Shown piece by piece: positions 6,760 through 32,009 of a DNA stretch of 35,811 nt (within the stretch, counting starts at the first letter, position 1; each line of letters begins with the position of its first letter). This DNA comes from Planctomicrobium piriforme. Lineage in GTDB: Bacteria; Planctomycetota; Planctomycetia; Pirellulales; UBA1268. The stretch covers positions 1-35,811 of the forward strand of contig CAMBPQ010000029.1 of NCBI GenBank assembly GCA_945869735.1, read 5' to 3'. The notes beneath the pieces are model-generated. The model had not been told where the DNA came from. It saw only the letters and a list, made by a program, of their open reading frames with translations, and did not search any database. Both the position numbers and the translations under genes were made by a program.

Positions 6760-6915
6760 CTAGAACGCATTCGACTTACGTGAATCGCCGGCTCGGGGGC
6801 GACAAAAGTCTCGTCGCCGAGGCGAGGATACGCCCAAGGTTCCTCGAGCGTTCGCCGACCCGCTTGCCTCCCTGCTCCCGGGTGCCGTCACACCGCTCCA
6901 CCAAAGGCAGATGCG
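6760..6915 (+). repeat. dispersed convergent-junction repeat, copy A (near full length)
   Basis: This 156-nt segment fills the gap between the converging ATPase and HtrA genes. Reversed, it aligns at roughly 80% by eye with 26785-26939. Shared blocks include GCATTCGACTT, CGCCGGCTCGGGGGCG, CAAAAGTCT, GATACGCCC and CCGCTCCACCAAAGGCAG. It begins with CTAGAACGC, whose TAG (6761-6763) lies in the ATPase frame four codons after the real TGA. A stem GGCGAC/GTCGCC with a 9-nt loop is kept in copy B through a G-U pair. The reading frame across it is not conserved in a protein-like way. Confidence 0.8.
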
Positions 6916-6917
6916 CT

Positions 6918-8027
6918 CTACCGTGGCCGGCGGCCGACCTGCACGGCGACCGCCTGCGGACTGCCATCGCGGACGATCTTGAGTTCGACGGTCGCGCCGA
7001 TCGGAGCCCTCGTGAGCTGGAGCACAAGCCCCGCCGGCTCGGCGACGGGCTCGTCATCGAACGACACGACCACGTCGCCGCGGCGGATGCCAGCCAGTGC
7101 GGCGGGCGAATTCGGCTCCACCGCCTCGACGACCACACCAAAGACACTCGGCCCCGACGACCGCAGGGCCATGCCGAGATAGCCCCGCTCCACGTAGCCG
7201 CTCGCAAGGATCGCGCTGCTCACCTGCCGTGCGACGTTGCTTGGGATCGCGAAGCCGATGCCGCTGTAGTCCTTGCCGACGATCGCCGTGGTGATGCCGA
7301 TCACGCGGCCGTGCACGTCCACGAGCGGACCACCCGAGTTGCCGGGGTTGATCGACGCATCGGTCTGGAGGAACTCCTGGTAGGGGCTGTTGAGCACTCC
7401 GCGACGCCCCACGGCGCTCACGATCCCGTAGGTCAGCGTGCGGTCGAGCCCGAACGGATTGCCGATCGCCCACACCATCTCCCCCACCTCAATCGAGTCG
7501 CTATCGCCCCAGGCCGCCGCCGGTAGTTCCCGGGCGTCGACTCGCAGCACGGCCATGTCGGTTGCGGGGTCGGCGCCCAACAGCTCGGCCGTGAAGCGAC
7601 GACCGTCGGACAGCGTGACGTCGATCTGGTCGCTGTTGGCGACCACGTGATAGTTCGTGAGGATCATCCCGTCGGATTCGACGATCACTCCCGATCCCAC
7701 CTGCTCGTCGGTGACGCCGACCGGTGACAGTCCGCGGAGGGCCGCGATCTCGTCGGCGACCGTCACCAGCCGCCGCTTCGACGTGACGTTGACGACCGAC
7801 GGGCCGATCAACCGGGCGAGCGTCGTGAAGAGCTTGCCCACCGCCGTCAGCTCGGCCCCGGCGGCCGCGTCGCGGATTGCGGCGATCTCGGCCCGGGTCC
7901 GCGCGTAGTGCATTCGGCCCACGAACGACGGCCAGGCAATCAGCCCCACGAGCGTCAATAACCCCGCAAAGAGAAACAGCGTCCGGCGGGCGGCCGCTGT
8001 ACGACGATCGTCTGGGACGTCTTTCAT
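6918..8027 (-). CDS. membrane-anchored HtrA/DegP-type serine protease with one PDZ domain
   Basis: A 369-aa envelope protease. An uncleaved hydrophobic anchor at ~17-36 (LFLFAGLLTLVGLIAW) places the rest outside the cytoplasmic membrane. The trypsin-like domain carries the full triad: H127 in TNYHVV, D157 in TDMAVL and S231 in GNSGGP. The oxyanion region INPGNSGG is intact. A single PDZ domain at ~280-367 has the carboxylate loop YLGM. Architecture matches DegS/HtrA-like quality-control proteases that cleave misfolded or signalling substrates. Its start overlaps the cinA stop by 4 nt (8024-8027), so the two are co-transcribed with cinA first. Its 3' end abuts repeat copy A. A second HtrA lies at 10770, so the genome has paralogues. 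Confidence 0.93.
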   Translation of the reverse strand: MKDVPDDRRTAAARRTLFLFAGLLTLVGLIAWPSFVGRMHYARTRAEIAAIRDAAAGAELTAVGKLFTTLARLIGPSVVNVTSKRRLVTVADEIAALRGLSPVGVTDEQVGSGVIVESDGMILTNYHVVANSDQIDVTLSDGRRFTAELLGADPATDMAVLRVDARELPAAAWGDSDSIEVGEMVWAIGNPFGLDRTLTYGIVSAVGRRGVLNSPYQEFLQTDASINPGNSGGPLVDVHGRVIGITTAIVGKDYSGIGFAIPSNVARQVSSAILASGYVERGYLGMALRSSGPSVFGVVVEAVEPNSPAALAGIRRGDVVVSFDDEPVAEPAGLVLQLTRAPIGATVELKIVRDGSPQAVAVQVGRRPR

Positions 8028-12080: not shown

Positions 12081-12090
12081 CGGTCGCTCA

Positions 12091-12148
12091 CGCGTGGGGC
12101 TTCTTGGAGGCACCCGACGCAGCGCCTCCCGTCAGGAAGCCCCACGCG
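12091..12148 (+). repeat. long imperfect palindrome downstream of htrA
   Basis: CGCGTGGGGCTTC (12091-12103) pairs perfectly with GAAGCCCCACGCG (12136-12148). Inside it, GGAGGC (12106-12111) pairs with GCCTCC (12124-12129). The structure starts 10 nt after the htrA stop, so it could act as a 3' stabiliser or terminator. No T-tract follows. Its right arm is shared with the next repeat unit, so the two hairpins are mutually exclusive. Confidence 0.7.
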
Positions 12149-12165
12149 CAAGCGTGGGGAATACG
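12135..12165 (+). repeat. 31-nt REP-like unit 1
   Basis: The unit has ends GGAAGCCC and GGGAATACG around a 14-nt core. It folds as CCCCACGC-GCAA-GCGTGGGG, an 8-bp stem closed by a GNRA-type tetraloop. The same ends at the same spacing recur in inverse orientation at 12210-12240. Confidence 0.65.
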
Positions 12166-12209
12166 CCCCCCACCCCGCTCCGCTCCGCGCCACGCCAGCG
12201 GTCGCCATC

Positions 12210-12240
12210 CGTATTCCCGTCGCCCGCGCTGCGGGCTTCC
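12210..12240 (-). repeat. 31-nt REP-like unit 2 (inverted)
   Basis: Read on the minus strand it has the same 8-nt GGAAGCCC and 9-nt GGGAATACG ends as unit 1 and the same total length. The core differs and folds as GCCCGC-AGC-GCGGGC. It lies 31 nt upstream of the thiL start. The two units together form an inverted pair like a BIME. Confidence 0.65.
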
Positions 12241-23564: not shown

Positions 23565-25013
23565 TTAGGCCTCCGCCGGCACGCCGGCAAGGTCGTAGCC
23601 GCTGGCCGCGACGATTTCGACCGGCAAGATGCGACCCGTGAGCGGCGACTTGGGCGAGGTGCCGAACGCCGTCAGGTAGACCATGCAGTCGATGTCGGGG
23701 GCATCACCCTTTGTCCGAGCGATCCAGACGTCGTCCCGTTCGCCGCTCGGCCGGTCGACGATCACATCGAGCGTGCGGCCGACCTGCCTGCGGGCATGAT
23801 CGTGGGCGATGCCCTGCTGCACGAGCATCAGTTCGTCGCGGCGGGCTGCTTTCTCCTCGTCGGGCAGATGCCCGTCGAGCCGGGCCGCCGGGGTGTCGGG
23901 CTCCAGCGAATAGGGAAACACGCCCACCCGCTCAAACCTCCAGCGCTCTACGAAGTCGACCATCTCCTGAAACTGGTCCCGGGTCTCTCCCGGAAAACCC
24001 GCGATGAATGTCGTGCGAAGCACGAGGTCGGGAATCTGGTCGCGGAGTTTGCCCAGGAGTTGTTCCGTCGCCGGCCGGTTGACCCGCCTCTGCATCCGCT
24101 TGAGCACCGGGTCGCTGGCGTGCTGGAGCGGCATGTCGAGGTAGGGGACGATCTTCCGGCTCGTGGCAATCTTTTCGATGAGCCGGTCGGTGAAATACAT
24201 CGGGTAGAGGTACATCAGCCGGATCCACTCGAGCCCCTCGACCTCCTCAAGCGCGTCGAGCAGTTCCACGAGCCGCGTCTCGCCATAGAGGTCGAGGCCG
24301 TAATAAGTCGTATCCTGCGCGACGATCACGAGCTCCTTTACCCCATCCGCGGCTAACTCTCTCGCCTCGCGGATGACCTCCTCGATGGGCTTGGTGGCGT
24401 GCTTGCCCCGCATCTTCGGGATCGCGCAAAACGTGCAGGTCCGGTCGCAGCCCTCGGAGATCTTGAGGTAGGCCATGTGCCGGGGCGTGACCCGCATGCG
24501 GCCCGAGTCGTCGAGCGCCCGGGCAGGCGCTGGTCGGAAGATGCTCCGCTGGTCGCCGAGGCCGCCGATCAGCCGTTCCGCCGCCTTCGCGATCTCGTCC
24601 CGCGAAAACACGCCGATCACGGCATCGAGGCCGGGCAACTCCTGGAGCAGCCCTTCCTTCTGCCGCTCGGCGAGGCAGCCCGACACGATCACGCCCCGCG
24701 TCTCCCCCTGCTTCTTAAGCTCAAGCATCTCATGGATGGCCGCATACGACTCGGCTCGCGAGGCATCGATGAAGGCGCAGGTGTTCACGATCACGATGTC
24801 CGAGCCCTTGGGCTCCGCGACCAGTTGCCAGCCGTCGTTCCGCAGCAATCCCAGCATCCGCTCGCCATCGACGAGGTTTTTGGGGCAGCCCAGGCTGACC
24901 ATCGAGAACGTGCCGCGGCAGGTGGCGGGATCGAGGGGAGCCACGGCCGGCAGCGGGCCGCCCGCCACTCCGCACGACTCCCCGCTTGATTCGACAATCG
25001 GCAAGCGATGCAT
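23565..25013 (-). CDS. rimO: ribosomal protein S12 methylthiotransferase RimO
   Basis: A 482-aa radical SAM methylthiotransferase that modifies the conserved Asp of ribosomal protein S12. The N-terminal UPF0004 domain carries C43 (MVSLGCPKNLVDGE), C79 (VNTCAFI) and C113 (SGCLAE), ligands of the auxiliary cluster. The radical SAM CxxxCxxC is C189, C193 and C196 in GCDRTCTFCAIP. SLGCPKNLVD and the following block point to RimO over MiaB. A TRAM domain ends the protein. The ATG at 25013 is preferred to an upstream in-frame start at 25088 because that extension translates the ispG 3' end out of frame. Only 1 nt separates it from the ispG stop. The ~37 residues before the UPF0004 domain are unusual. 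Confidence 0.95.
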   Translation of the reverse strand: MHRLPIVESSGESCGVAGGPLPAVAPLDPATCRGTFSMVSLGCPKNLVDGERMLGLLRNDGWQLVAEPKGSDIVIVNTCAFIDASRAESYAAIHEMLELKKQGETRGVIVSGCLAERQKEGLLQELPGLDAVIGVFSRDEIAKAAERLIGGLGDQRSIFRPAPARALDDSGRMRVTPRHMAYLKISEGCDRTCTFCAIPKMRGKHATKPIEEVIREARELAADGVKELVIVAQDTTYYGLDLYGETRLVELLDALEEVEGLEWIRLMYLYPMYFTDRLIEKIATSRKIVPYLDMPLQHASDPVLKRMQRRVNRPATEQLLGKLRDQIPDLVLRTTFIAGFPGETRDQFQEMVDFVERWRFERVGVFPYSLEPDTPAARLDGHLPDEEKAARRDELMLVQQGIAHDHARRQVGRTLDVIVDRPSGERDDVWIARTKGDAPDIDCMVYLTAFGTSPKSPLTGRILPVEIVAASGYDLAGVPAEA

Positions 25014-25014
25014 G

Positions 25015-26193
25015 TCAGGCCTGTTCCGCGATGATCTTGTCGAGTTCTTCACGGAGCCGTGGCAGGATCGCCTCGTAGGGAAACGCACCGAGTTCGGCGC
25101 TCCGCTTCTTAAGGTTCACGTGCGTGGGCCCGCACCACAGGCCGAGATCGGCGTCGTCGGTCTCGCCTGGCCCGTTCACGCGGCAGCCCATCACCGCGAT
25201 CGTGATCCTGTGGTCGCGGGCGTAGGCGGTCATTTCCTTGACCTGCTTGGCAAGTTCGATGAAGGCCTCGTTCTCGACCCGTGAGCAACTCGGGCAGGAG
25301 ATGATGTTGAGCGACGCGAGGCCGTAGTCGACCACGCTCCGCACGCGGCCGGCGGCGATGTCGGCAAGGATCGCCTGGGCGGCGGCGATCTCCTGCGGCT
25401 TGTCGACGTTGGGCACCGTGAGCGACACCCGCACGGTGTCGCCGATGCCCCGGGAGATCAGCTGCTCGAAGGCGATCCGCGTCTTGATGATCCCATCAGG
25501 GGGCATGCCCGCCTCAGTCACGCCGAGATGGAGCGGCACGTCGGGCCGCTGGCTGCTGAACCGACGGTTGACCTCGATCACCTTCTGCGGATCAGAGTCT
25601 TTGAGCGACACGGCATACCGCGTGAAGCCGATCGAGTCGAGCAGGTCGCAATGCTCGAAGGCGCTGGCGAGCATCGGCCCGATCGAGTCGTCCTCAGCGA
25701 ACTGCTCTTTCTTCGCCGGGTCGACGCTGCCGCAGTTCACACCCACGCGGAGTGCGCAGTCATTGTCGCCGGCCACGCCGGCGATGAACCGCACCTTCTC
25801 CTGCCACGGCTTGGTCGGCTCGTGGTGGTAGAGGTGGCCGGGGTTGTAGCGGAGCTTGTCGACATGCGGGGCGACGTCGAGGGCGAGTCGGTAGTTTTCC
25901 TGGAGGTCGATGGCGAGGTTGGCCTGAGTTCCGGCCCGGATGGCGGGCAGCGCGGCGGCGTCCTTCTTTGAGTCGACGGCGATCCGCACCACCCCTGCCC
26001 CGGCCGCGTGCAGGGCGTTGGCCTGCTCGAGCGTGGCCTCGATGTTTTGCGTGTGGGTGGCGGTCATGCTCTGGGAGGCGATCGGGTGTCCGGCCCCGAT
26101 CGTGATGCTCCCGATCCGCACCGCCCGCGTTGGATGTCTCTTCAACTCGACCACGGCCTCTCCTCGCGACACACTGTGCTTTCCCGCCGACAC
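25015..26193 (-). CDS. ispG: 4-hydroxy-3-methylbut-2-enyl diphosphate synthase (flavodoxin/ferredoxin)
   Basis: A 392-aa [4Fe-4S] enzyme of the methylerythritol phosphate pathway, converting MEcPP to HMBPP. The TIM-barrel half has [14 protein letters not shown] and YNPGH. The cluster-binding half has CPSCSR (C300, C303) and GCRVNGPGE (C337, E344). The length and absence of an extra central domain match the short bacterial form. The start at 26193 is GTG; the first ~15 residues are variable, so a slightly later start is possible. It heads the seven-gene minus-strand run and is divergent from trmL over only 58 nt, so both promoters must be compact. Confidence 0.95.
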
Positions 26194-26251
26194 TTCCGGC
26201 GCTCTCCACCCTCAAAACAATAGCAGACGCCGTCCGGCCGGCGATACGCCC

Positions 26252-26731
26252 ATGCGGTATGTGCCCCGCCTCCATATCGTCCTGCACGAGCCCGAAATCC
26301 CTCCCAATGCGGGTAACGTCGGCCGAACCTCGGTGGCCATCGCGGCCAAGATGTGGCTCGTGCGTCCGCTCGGATTCCAGATCGACGACTATTACCTCCG
26401 CCGCGCGGGCCTCGACTACTGGGACGAACTCGAATGGGAGGTGGTCGATTCGTGGGCCCACCTTCAGGGGCGGCTCGCCGCCAGCGGTGCCGGCGGCATG
26501 TGGCTTTTTTCAGCCAAAGCCAAAAAGTCGTATCTCGACGTGACCTACGCCGAGGGAGACGTGCTCGTGTTCGGGAAGGAGTCGCAGGGGCTACCCGCCG
26601 AGATCACGGCGGCACATCCCGACCGTCTGTTGACGATCCCGTCGCGGCCGCAGGTCAGGAGCCTCAACGTCGCCAACTGCGCCGCGATCGTCGCCTACGA
26701 AGCGATCCGACAGTGGGGCGGCACGGTCTGA
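26252..26731 (+). CDS. trmL: tRNA (cytidine/uridine-34-2'-O)-methyltransferase
   Basis: A 159-aa SPOUT methyltransferase that methylates the wobble ribose of certain leucine tRNAs. The three SPOUT motifs are clear: PPNAGNVGRT at ~18-27, FGKESQGLP in motif 2 and RSLNVANCAAIVAYEA in motif 3, which forms the trefoil knot. The length is typical for TrmL, which lacks the extra RNA-binding domain of TrmH. The ATG at 26252 is chosen since the family starts just before the LHIVLHEPEIPPN strand. It is the only gene on its strand between ispG and the following convergent repeat. Confidence 0.94.
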   Translation: MRYVPRLHIVLHEPEIPPNAGNVGRTSVAIAAKMWLVRPLGFQIDDYYLRRAGLDYWDELEWEVVDSWAHLQGRLAASGAGGMWLFSAKAKKSYLDVTYAEGDVLVFGKESQGLPAEITAAHPDRLLTIPSRPQVRSLNVANCAAIVAYEAIRQWGGTV

Positions 26732-26745
26732 CACGGTCTTCAGAC

Positions 26746-26771
26746 GTCCCCACGGCGTCCGCCGTGGGGAC
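26746..26771. terminator. perfect palindrome after trmL
   Basis: GTCCCCACGGC and GCCGTGGGGAC form an 11-bp perfect stem with a 4-nt loop, 15 nt after the trmL stop. There is no T-tract on either strand, so it may be an intrinsic-like terminator, a 3' end stabiliser, or part of an extended form of repeat copy B, which starts 13 nt further on. Confidence 0.5.
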
Positions 26772-26784
26772 TGCCAGCCTCGAT

Positions 26785-26939
26785 CGCACCTGCCTTTGGT
26801 GGAGCGGCGAGATGGCACTTTGGAGGAGGGAGGCAAGGGGATCTGCGAACGCTGGAGAGCCACGGGCGTATCTTCGCCCCGGCGACAAGACTTTTGCCGC
26901 CCCCGAGCCGGCGAGTTACCAAAGTCGAATGCGCTCTAG
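26785..26939 (-). repeat. dispersed convergent-junction repeat, copy B (near full length)
   Basis: Read on the minus strand this starts GCTAGAGCGCATTCGACTT and ends CCACCAAAGGCAGGTGCG, matching copy A along its length. Its TAG (26936-26938) is the actual stop codon of the upstream minus-strand 99-aa gene. The GGCGGC/GTCGCC stem is kept relative to copy A with an A-U to G-U change. It fills the convergent gap between trmL and that gene. Confidence 0.8.
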
Positions 26940-27235
26940 CGGTAGCTGTTGTCGCCGTACTGCCGCACCCGCTCAGCGGCTCGATATGCATCGGTCCGTA
27001 GGTCGTTCCCGATGGCGGTGGCGCGATCTTTGTTGAAGTTGAACGTAGGCATACCGCCGTTAAACGAGATCGTGAGGATCCCGCTCGCGATCAGGAACGG
27101 GATCAGCAGGAGCAGGATTTTTGACCCAAACTTCGAGGTCGCGACTTTCTGCACCGGCGATGGAAGGCCCATCGTCGCGATGCCTGCGATTTGCTGCGTA
27201 TAGCTGGTCGTCGACTTCGTCTTTTTCTTGGCCAT
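26936..27235 (-). CDS. small single-pass membrane protein of unknown function
   Basis: A 99-aa protein. The N-terminus is basic (MAKKKTKSTT), followed by a region with conserved-looking GLPSPVQKVATSKFGSK. One membrane helix (ILLLLIPFLIASGILTI, ~40-56) is followed by a polar C-terminal part with NFNKDRATAIGNDLR and YRAAERVRQYGDNSYR. No signal peptidase site is evident; topology could be N-in. An AGGAG lies upstream of the ATG. It is downstream of the toroid-protein gene on the same strand (~147 nt), so co-expression is possible. I do not recognise the family. Its stop codon is supplied by the repeat. Confidence 0.65.
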   Translation of the reverse strand: MAKKKTKSTTSYTQQIAGIATMGLPSPVQKVATSKFGSKILLLLIPFLIASGILTISFNGGMPTFNFNKDRATAIGNDLRTDAYRAAERVRQYGDNSYR

Positions 27236-27279
27236 GTCACTCTTGCTCCTGGGCGTACCCTAGTCATCGGCAGTCGACC

Positions 27280-27299
27280 CAGCGGCGATTGAGCCGCTG
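27280..27299 (-). terminator. short perfect hairpin between the toroid gene and the 99-aa gene
   Basis: CAGCGGC and GCCGCTG form a 7-bp stem with a 6-nt loop about 84 nt after the toroid gene's stop. No T-tract follows on the minus strand, so terminator function is uncertain. Confidence 0.3.
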
Positions 27300-27382
27300 C
27301 GACGCCGCGGGTAGGAATGCCGTGGACCGCAGGGTTTGCGCAGAGGCCCGGACTTCCATCGGGGGGGCGCTGAGCCCGAAAA

Positions 27383-29860: not shown

Positions 29861-29915
29861 ACAAAACCCCTGCCGCCCCCGAGCCGGCGATATACCTCAC
29901 TCAAAAGCGCTCTAG
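29861..29915 (-). repeat. dispersed convergent-junction repeat, copy C (truncated)
   Basis: On the minus strand this reads GCTAGAGCGC, a diverged spacer, then TCGCCGGCTCGGGGGCGGCA, matching the first ~50 nt of copies A and B. The remainder is missing and replaced by the flanking hairpin. Its TAG (29912-29914) is the stop codon of the minus-strand beta-helix gene. Confidence 0.7.
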
Positions 29916-31858
29916 CGGCGGCGGGGCAGGATGCGGATGCCACTGGTGACGAGGGGCGTGAACGCGGGCACGGCGGGATTGCCGGCGAGGTCGGCGATCG
30001 CCGCGCCCGGCGGCAACGCGATCTGCCGCGTCAGACGGATGCCCGCCGGCGCCGACAGGCCTGGAGGCACCGTCCAGCGAAACAGCAGCCTGTCGGTACC
30101 GCTGCCGGAGACATATTCCGCCCGCTGGAGGGCGCGGCCGACCATGAAGGCCAGCCGCGGCCCGCCCACAACGGTCACCGCCTCGCTGAACCGTACCGTA
30201 AACACGAGAACGGCGCCGGGGCGATAGACGGCCGCCCGGGGGGCGACGACGGCCAGGATGCTCGGCCGCAAGGAGTCCACTGGCGGCGGGACCACCGGCA
30301 GCGGGTCGACGGGTGGCGTCACGCCCGCCGCGACGAAGGCGCCGGGCGCCTGCGGGCCGAGCCGGGCTACGCCGGCGTGATCGAACCGCACACTCATGTC
30401 GCTGCGGCCGACCGGCACGGCGGGCCGCGTGGGCGCGGCTGCCCAGGCGAAGCTGGGAATCACCACGCTGGTCGGGGGCACGAACGATGCGGCCAGCCGA
30501 TAGTCGCCGCCGGCAAGGTCGACAAACGCCGGCCGCACCGTGTTGATCGAGTTGGTCGCGACGACATCGGCCGCCAGGGCTGCCGGCTCGATACCCAACT
30601 CGTGCCCGACCGGGCCGTTCCAAATGAGATTGCCGCGGATCACGAGGCCGTCGTCGGCTCGGGCTGGAGAAGGGATATTGGAGCCGGCTGCCGGCGTTCG
30701 CGGTGCGGCCACGGCGAACTGCTGCCAGCGACTCGCGGCGCCCGGGTTGAAGACGACGTTGTTCACGATCACGACGTTCTTGTTGGGGATCGACTCCTCC
30801 CGGCCCGGCGTCGCCGTCCCCCAGCCACCGACGGTGAGATTGGCGGCGCAGGTCGCCGCGTCGCCGTCGCAGCTTCGCAGCCCGTGGACCACCTCGATCA
30901 CGTGGCTGCGGCTGCCCACGTTCACGAGCGTGTTGTGGGCCAGGAGGATGTTGAAGCCGCCGTTGACGCCGATCCCGGCGCCCTCGACGTCACGAATAAC
31001 ATTGTTCGTGAAGGCGATGTCGTAGGCCTCGTAGTGGAGCCAGGGGGCCACCATGAACTCGAAGCCAGTGCCCTGGCCGGCCGTGAACCCGCCGGTGCCC
31101 GCGTCGAAGAACTCGTTGCCGGTGATCGTGAGATAAGCCGAGCCCCCCTTGGCGTACATCGCCCAGTCGCCGGAGCGGTGGATCCGGCTGCCGACCACGT
31201 GGCCATACTGGACCGCCACGAAGTCGACCGCATTGTCCCAGGCGCCCGAGATGTCGCAGTGCTCGATGTAGACGTGCTGCGATTGATTGACCTTGAGGGC
31301 CTCCTGGGGCACCGCGTAGGTCGCGATCTGGCCGGTGCCACGGATCGTGGTGTCGCGGAGGAGCACGTGCGAACTGGCCTGGATCTGCACGACGTCGCCC
31401 CCGCCGGCGGTCACCTCGAGGCCCACGAGGTGAAGGTGGCGGCAGTCGAAGTTGTTGAGGCTCGGTAGCCGGGCCGTGCCGGGGCCGTCGGCGGCCCGGA
31501 TGATCACGGGCGCCGTGAACGTGCCGTGGCGGCTCTCCCAGAAGTGGGGCACGGCCGACTGGGGATAGGTGCCGGCCACGAGGTTGATCCGGACACCTTG
31601 GGAAAGCGTGGTCCGCGTGGGCACCCGGCGCCAGGCCTCGGATAGCGTCTGCACGGCCAGTTCTCGGGAGGCCCCGCTGCGAGCGTCGCTCCCGGCCGCG
31701 GGATCGACCCAGAGCTCAACCACGTCGGGCGAACCCGTGTCGTAGACGGGCAGGAGCCCCGTCCCGCTCATCACGCGACGCTGCTCGCAGGCCTCGAACG
31801 CGAGCGGCCGCGGCCGTCCGGCGAGTCGCCGGCGATGCCGAATCATGCAGGTTCCCAT
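29912..31858 (-). CDS. secreted right-handed beta-helix protein with C-terminal Ig-like region
   Basis: About 648 aa from the ATG at 31858; the ATG at 31846 and an upstream start at 31927 are alternatives. The Arg-rich N-terminus followed by LAFEACEQRRVMSGTG matches the short segment near the start of many planctomycetal exported proteins. Next comes WVDPAAGSDARSG, a common opening of parallel beta-helix (DUF1565-like) domains, then PbH1-type repeats over ~100-400, with phrases such as VLLRDTTIRGTG, YLTITGNEFFDAG, DIAFTNNVIRDVEGAGIGVN and VVIVNNVVFN. The last ~130 residues (VFTVRFSEAVTV, LTRQIALPPGAAIADLAGNP) resemble Ig-like repeats. Beta-helix proteins of this kind are often polysaccharide lyases or adhesins; no catalytic set is evident. 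The stop codon lies in repeat copy C. Confidence 0.82.
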   Translation of the reverse strand: MGTCMIRHRRRLAGRPRPLAFEACEQRRVMSGTGLLPVYDTGSPDVVELWVDPAAGSDARSGASRELAVQTLSEAWRRVPTRTTLSQGVRINLVAGTYPQSAVPHFWESRHGTFTAPVIIRAADGPGTARLPSLNNFDCRHLHLVGLEVTAGGGDVVQIQASSHVLLRDTTIRGTGQIATYAVPQEALKVNQSQHVYIEHCDISGAWDNAVDFVAVQYGHVVGSRIHRSGDWAMYAKGGSAYLTITGNEFFDAGTGGFTAGQGTGFEFMVAPWLHYEAYDIAFTNNVIRDVEGAGIGVNGGFNILLAHNTLVNVGSRSHVIEVVHGLRSCDGDAATCAANLTVGGWGTATPGREESIPNKNVVIVNNVVFNPGAASRWQQFAVAAPRTPAAGSNIPSPARADDGLVIRGNLIWNGPVGHELGIEPAALAADVVATNSINTVRPAFVDLAGGDYRLAASFVPPTSVVIPSFAWAAAPTRPAVPVGRSDMSVRFDHAGVARLGPQAPGAFVAAGVTPPVDPLPVVPPPVDSLRPSILAVVAPRAAVYRPGAVLVFTVRFSEAVTVVGGPRLAFMVGRALQRAEYVSGSGTDRLLFRWTVPPGLSAPAGIRLTRQIALPPGAAIADLAGNPAVPAFTPLVTSGIRILPRRR

Positions 31859-32009
31859 GGCGACGCTGTCCTGTCTTCCGAACGCGTTTGCCTTGCCCCG
31901 CTCGAATAGTAGCGAGGCAGCGACCACAAAGCCACCGACCTGCTCCCCTTAAACGAGGCCACTCCGGGAGTGAGAATCCTGGGTGGCCGTAACCAAGGGA
32001 GGGCAAGAG

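What the first reader, a model, noticed from the sequence alone, without database searches (positions are those of the whole stretch)
6760..6915. A ~155-nt repeat sits in every roomy convergent junction and starts at a stop codon
Copies at 6760-6915, 26785-26939 and 29861-29915 share a common start. Each lies where two genes converge, in sense orientation after one of them. The other two convergent junctions in the window have overlapping or abutting genes and no space. In two copies the TAG of CTAGAGCGC is the stop codon itself; in copy A it is an in-frame TAG four codons after TGA. This looks like a 3'-end element that terminates or protects transcripts, or a mobile repeat targeted to gene ends.
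Basis: seen in the sequence. Interest (0 to 1): 0.7.

Follow-up and report, generated by a model that had tools for sequence, protein, structure and literature searches.

The report
Stop-codon-hugging mini-transposon in a planctomycete
The repeat is a small, gene-less jumping DNA (about 160 bases, probably some 290 copies in this planctomycete genome) that borrows the machinery of an IS630-type transposon; it lands on the DNA word (C/T)TA(A/G), which at gene ends is a TAG or TAA stop codon, so it often sits exactly at stop codons without harming the gene.

Summary
The repeat is real and genome-wide: 105 copies in 1.144 Mb of the window's own genome (36% sampled), on both strands. It is a ~157-bp element with imperfect inverted ends (YTAG-AGCGCAT...). 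Copies favour convergent junctions (43 convergent, 49 co-directional, 5 divergent). 38 of the 40 stop codons that coincide with an element end are TAG or TAA, although 71% of stops are TGA. CTAG stops are occupied in 40% of cases, TGA stops in 0.3%. Many orthologous sites in a close relative lack the element. Elements carrying an IS630-family (DDE_3) transposase in congeners have the same ends; the own genome keeps only a decayed IS630 copy, one end of which matches the repeat 23/23 bases. So this is an IS630-derived MITE targeting TA in YTAR. Stop-codon contact follows from target choice plus survival where genes are not broken; convergent enrichment is probably purifying selection. A terminator or RNA function is not supported: no intrinsic terminator, no excess folding, no Rfam match, no covariation. 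Two points stay open: TA is usually kept at only one end (the other reads TC or GA), and an 85-nt core is identical between species, restricted to one family, and sometimes lacks the mobile ends.

The parts
6763..6918 (-). MITE copy A, full length, inverted relative to copy B; flanked by TA at both ends (6761-6762 and 6919-6920)
   Evidence: 84% identical to copy B; profile score 148 bits
6918..6920 (-). TAG stop codon of the trypsin/PDZ-type protease gene 6918-8027, formed at the end of copy A
   Evidence: translation; the syntenic site in relative G022 keeps TAG at the same place without the element; Pfam
26782..26936 (+). MITE copy B, full length; TC at the left flank (26780-26781), TA at the right (26937-26938)
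   Evidence: absent at the orthologous site in L114, where a further ~45 bp beside it are also missing
26936..26938 (-). TAG stop codon of the small gene 26936-27235, formed at the end of copy B; the relative has TGA at the same codon
29871..29912 (+). Copy C: only the right end of the element (~43 bp)
   Evidence: profile match to model positions 114-156, 21 bits
29912..29914 (-). TAG stop codon of the beta-helix protein gene 29912-31927, formed at the end of copy C
   Evidence: Pfam
26827..26911 (+). Approximate position in copy B of the 85-nt core that is conserved across genera of the family

Best explanation
The repeat is a MITE (a non-autonomous miniature transposable element) of the IS630 / Tc1-mariner superfamily in a planctomycete. 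Its inverted ends (GAGCGCAT...) are recognised in trans by an IS630-type transposase, of which this genome now shows only decayed remnants. The transposase inserts the element at TA within YTAR, best CTAG. Because the element's first base is G, insertion at the TA of a TAG or TAA stop rebuilds TAG and leaves the protein unchanged. In a 67% GC genome YTAR is scarce, and about a quarter of the sites that can be hit without breaking a gene are stop codons. Selection then removes insertions inside and upstream of genes, leaving those at gene 3' ends and above all between convergent genes. Shown here: distribution, target context, orthologous sites without the element, ends shared with IS630 elements. 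Inferred: mobilisation in trans, and selection as the cause of the junction bias.
For: 105 dispersed copies. Inverted ends. 38 of 40 abutted stops are TAR; occupancy CTAG 20/50, TTAG 5/15, CTAA 5/37, TTAA 2/7 against GTAG 5/81 and TGA 2/641. Syntenic sites in relative G022 lack the element, most cleanly C4:63287. IS630-type (PF13358) elements in congeners carry the same ends on both sides of the transposase (L164, L167; one end in L166); a decayed own copy (L173) has one end matching 23/23 bases. IS630 family members insert at TA and IS630 prefers CTAG (PMC2170065 and the 1991 paper it cites). The known pneumococcal MITE RUP is linked to IS630-Spn1 and is enriched between convergent genes (PMC3049150).
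Against: A TA duplication, expected for IS630, is not seen at both ends: TA stands at exactly one end in 39 of 54 full copies and at both in only 3; the other end is mostly TC or GA. No transposase intact enough to move the element was found in the own genome. The core is more conserved across genera than the ends, which a plain MITE does not predict.
Confidence: 0.88

Rival explanations
1. A functional 3'-end RNA element, kept at gene ends because it terminates transcription or protects mRNA ends, especially between convergent genes.
For: Strong 3'-end and convergent bias; a core conserved across genera; the core can be drawn with an outer stem (96% of cells pair).
Against: No intrinsic terminator; folding not better than shuffled sequence; no Rfam match; pairs almost invariant, so no covariation above control; copies occur in both orientations relative to the gene; many orthologous genes lack it.
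Confidence: 0.05
2. A REP/REPIN-type repeat moved by a Y1 (RAYT) transposase, whose ends supply TAG stops as reported for GTAG REPs.
For: Intergenic, downstream of genes, ends supply TAG stops, as in GTAG REPs (PMC3733652).
Against: No Y1 transposase in the own genome and none in 13 of 22 congeners; the 11 Y1 loci fetched carry no such ends, whereas several IS630 loci do.
Confidence: 0.03
3. An IS630-type MITE that, in addition to its YTAR target, is actively directed to gene 3' ends (for example by transcription or a host protein).
For: Convergent YTAR sites are occupied 53%, co-directional 21%, divergent 6%.
Against: Among TAR stops the base before TA decides occupancy (CTAG 40%, GTAG 6%), as plain target preference predicts; YTAR stops (32 of 109) and other intergenic YTAR sites (about 65 elements against 226 unoccupied sites) are occupied to a similar degree. 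Depletion in divergent regions is what selection against promoter damage predicts.
Confidence: 0.08

Closest known systems
RUP of Streptococcus pneumoniae (107-bp MITE with ends like IS630-Spn1)
   Same: Short non-coding element with ends like a resident IS630 element, dispersed, over-represented between convergent genes (PMC3049150).
   Different: Other sequence and host; larger (~157 bp), modular inside, with a core conserved across genera; exact contact with TAG/TAA stops quantified here.
IS630 (Shigella) and ISY100 (Synechocystis)
   Same: TA target with CTAG preference for IS630; DDE transposase of the same family (PMC2170065).
   Different: The repeat carries no gene; it usually shows TA at one end only, while ISY100 had a normal TA duplication in 34 of 39 products.
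GTAG REPs and BOX elements
   Same: Intergenic repeats downstream of genes whose ends supply stop codons (PMC3733652; PMC3049150: 36 BOX copies carry a gene's stop).
   Different: REPs are 20-40 bp palindromes linked to Y1 transposases; BOX is modular with other ends. No Y1 link here.

Membership tests
IS630-derived MITE | Short, non-coding, dispersed in many copies | tested here: met
   ~157 bp, 105 copies in 1.144 Mb
IS630-derived MITE | Terminal inverted repeats | tested here: met
   Both ends read YTAG-AGCGCAT inward, imperfect beyond
IS630-derived MITE | Ends shared with an IS630-family element of the same genome or genus | tested here: met
   L164, L167 on both sides of a DDE_3 transposase, L166 one end; own decayed copy L173, 23/23 bases
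IS630-derived MITE | Insertion at TA | tested here: met
   YTAR context at stops; C-TA-A at the cleanest empty site
IS630-derived MITE | Duplication of the target TA at both ends | tested here: inconclusive
   Both TA in 3 of 54 full copies, one TA in 39; the three longer G022 elements read through have TA at both outer ends
IS630-derived MITE | Absent at orthologous sites of relatives | tested here: met
   Several syntenic sites in G022 without the element
IS630-derived MITE | Movement by the IS630 transposase in trans | not testable with these tools
   Needs an experiment
REP/REPIN with RAYT | Associated Y1 transposase | tested here: not met
   None in the own genome; Y1 loci of congeners lack these ends
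Intrinsic terminator or structured RNA | GC-rich hairpin with T tract, or covarying structure | tested here: not met

The most novel reading that the evidence does not exclude
The 85-nt core is an independent, selected element (protein-binding site or RNA) of one planctomycete family that IS630-type ends have captured as cargo. It is 100% identical over 84-85 nt between species, was found only within this family among the genomes sampled from the order, and also occurs without the mobile ends and in tandem arrays. A second open oddity, TA at one end and TC or GA at the other, could mean a non-standard joining step.
Probability: 0.2. Interest if true: 0.6.

Novelty: new member of a known kind. 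Interest (0 to 1): 0.38.

Why it matters
It gives a clear, countable case of how target choice (YTAR) and genome composition can place a mobile element exactly on stop codons, which mimics a functional 3'-end element. It warns against reading gene-end placement as function. The core conserved between species and the one-sided TA are concrete, testable leftovers.

Tried and rejected
RNA role: Rfam, single-strand folding, RNAalifold and mutual information in the own genome (RNAalifold beats column shuffles at z about -3 to -4 but with a weak energy, and the mutual-information signal is mainly swapped central blocks), pair counts across genera. Y1/RAYT origin. Target duplication by correlation of the two flanks, lengths 2-8 at many offsets: one weak signal (z 2.6) among many tests; the test has little power if the target is invariant. 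Autonomous parent by pairing loose ends in the 1.14-Mb sample: only chance-like pairs. IS630 interior as source of the core: no similarity beyond the ends.

Full report
WHAT WAS CHECKED. Copies A (about 6760-6920) and B (26779-26939) are full-length and inverted relative to each other, 84% identical. Copy C (29871-29914) is only the last ~43 bp. In all three, TAG formed at an element end is the stop codon of a minus-strand gene (6918, 26936, 29912).

HOST. The window is contig C29 of a 3.17-Mb, 128-contig genome. Named relatives are planctomycete MAGs, mostly labelled Planctomycetia or Planctomycetaceae (some carry the label Kuenenia); the closest is JAIOPD010000033.1, 88% identical in the query protein.

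GENOME-WIDE. I sampled 1.144 Mb of the genome by stretches and searched it with an iterated profile: 105 copies, about one per 11 kb, so some 290 genome-wide by extrapolation. The consensus is about 157 bp. It begins CTAG-AGCGCATCTGCCTTTGGTGGAGCGG and its other end, read inward, is CTAG-AGCGCATTCGACTTACGTGGATCGCCGG, so the ends are imperfect inverted repeats. Inner modules vary between copies: alternative left arms, alternative central blocks, an optional insert of about 22 nt.

POSITION. With a simple hexamer gene model of my own (904 genes), 43 copies lie between convergent, 49 between co-directional and 5 between divergent genes; 2 are in a called gene and 6 at sample edges. By length of intergenic DNA one expects 18, 53 and 26 (chi-square p = 6e-12). 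Of 40 stops that coincide with an element end, 38 are TAG or TAA, although stops are 641 TGA, 165 TAG and 92 TAA (p = 9e-19). The base before TA matters: CTAG stops are occupied 20/50, TTAG 5/15, CTAA 5/37, TTAA 2/7, but GTAG 5/81, GTAA 0/34, ATAR 1/33, TGA 2/641 (Y against R before TA p = 1.6e-8). So the element goes to YTAR, best CTAG. YTAR stops are occupied 32/109, other intergenic YTAR sites to a similar degree (about 65 elements against 226 unoccupied sites). There are about 411 YTAR sites in genes and only two copies lie in a called gene. Occupancy by junction is 53% convergent, 21% co-directional, 6% divergent. Selection against damage to genes and promoters fits this (inference).

ORTHOLOGOUS SITES. 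In L114, window 24375-26736 and 26938-27358 align on either side of a gap where the ~200 bp with copy B are missing; the minus-strand gene ends at the same codon (TGA there, TAG here). The missing stretch is longer than the element: about 45 bp next to it, containing a hairpin, are absent too, so this site is not a clean insertion. In G022, the genome in which L114 lies, 26 of the 105 sites are syntenic in the stretches fetched. Many lack the element, though the sequence between the flanks is often not simply the flanks joined. The cleanest is C4:63287: CCGAC-TAAACTC there, CCGAC-GAGAGCGC...GCGCTC-TAAACTC here. At element-bearing TAG stops the relative has TAG 3, TAA 3, TGA 3 at the same position. 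One site carries the element in both genomes (C10:58814). At another stop (C5:25463 and L156) the two genomes carry elements in opposite orientation, which suggests independent hits on the same CTAG.

PARTNER. PF13358 (DDE_3, IS630-type) searched over the genus gave elements with the same ends on both sides of the transposase region: L164 (1399 and 2392, about 1 kb) and L167 (238 and 1254), plus one end in L166; in L164 and L167 the transposase lies in two reading frames. The own genome holds a decayed copy on C26 (L173, about 1004-1825), one end of which matches the repeat 23/23 bases, and a further transposase fragment on C5. Eleven Y1-transposase loci, used as a control, have no such ends, and the own genome has no Y1 transposase. 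IS630 is known to insert at TA with CTAG preferred (Tenzen and Ohtsubo 1991, title as cited in PMC2170065; ISY100 in the same paper). The relative G022 has near-identical, longer (about 400-460 bp) elements with the same ends, several running off contig ends, which suggests recent activity.

FUNCTION. Nothing supports an RNA role: no Rfam match, folding not better than shuffled, no terminator, no covariation above control. Enrichment of mobile repeats between convergent genes is known (RUP, SPRITE and IS elements in pneumococcus, explained there by tolerance; PMC3049150), and stop codons supplied by repeat ends are known for GTAG REPs (PMC3733652) and BOX.

OPEN POINTS. (1) In full copies the dinucleotide next to the element is TA at exactly one end in 39 of 54, at both in 3, at none in 12; the other end is mostly TC or GA (Fisher p = 0.0006, pooled with 14 further copies p = 0.0004). 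In the clean site the target TA is present once and GA stands at the other side. Transitions (CA, TG) are rare among these ends, so point mutation alone is an unlikely cause; it looks like a feature of the joining step or of how copies survive. I have no proven explanation. The three longer G022 elements that could be read through have TA at both outer ends. (2) The core is 100% identical over 84-85 nt between this species and congeners G008 and G009, over 82 nt in G018, and 98% to another genus, whereas flanks at sites syntenic with G022 are 77-90% identical. It is found in 51 of 296 genomes sampled from the order, all of them in the same family, and also occurs without recognisable mobile ends and in tandem arrays.

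LIMITS. 36% of the genome sampled; crude gene calls; end classes by automatic motif placement; no expression data; the genome is a draft assembly.

Noticed in passing
window 12084-12239; many places in the sampled genome: A second, palindromic intergenic repeat family (consensus CCAGGAAGCCCCAAGCGCGAGCGCGGGGAATACGGG...), 263 profile matches in the sample (palindromic, so many places are counted on both strands), beginning 4 bp after a gene end in the window; sometimes fused to the MITE.
   Followed up: partly
G022: L143, L144, L146, L148, L149, L155, L156, L158: Near-identical 400-460-bp composite elements with the same ends, several cut off at contig ends: probably recently active.
   Followed up: partly
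54 full-length copies of the own genome, e.g. C4:63287-63442: TA is kept at only one end of most copies; the other end reads TC or GA, a pattern that point mutation does not readily explain.
   Followed up: partly
L221 (G021:C13), L232 (G008:C30), L218, L228, L229, L230: The 85-nt core occurs in tandem arrays (~99-bp and ~140-bp spacing) and as single copies without recognisable mobile ends.
   Followed up: partly
window 26747-26775: A GC-rich hairpin (GTCCCCACGGCGTCCGCCGTGGGGAC) beside copy B is also absent from the relative L114.
   Followed up: no
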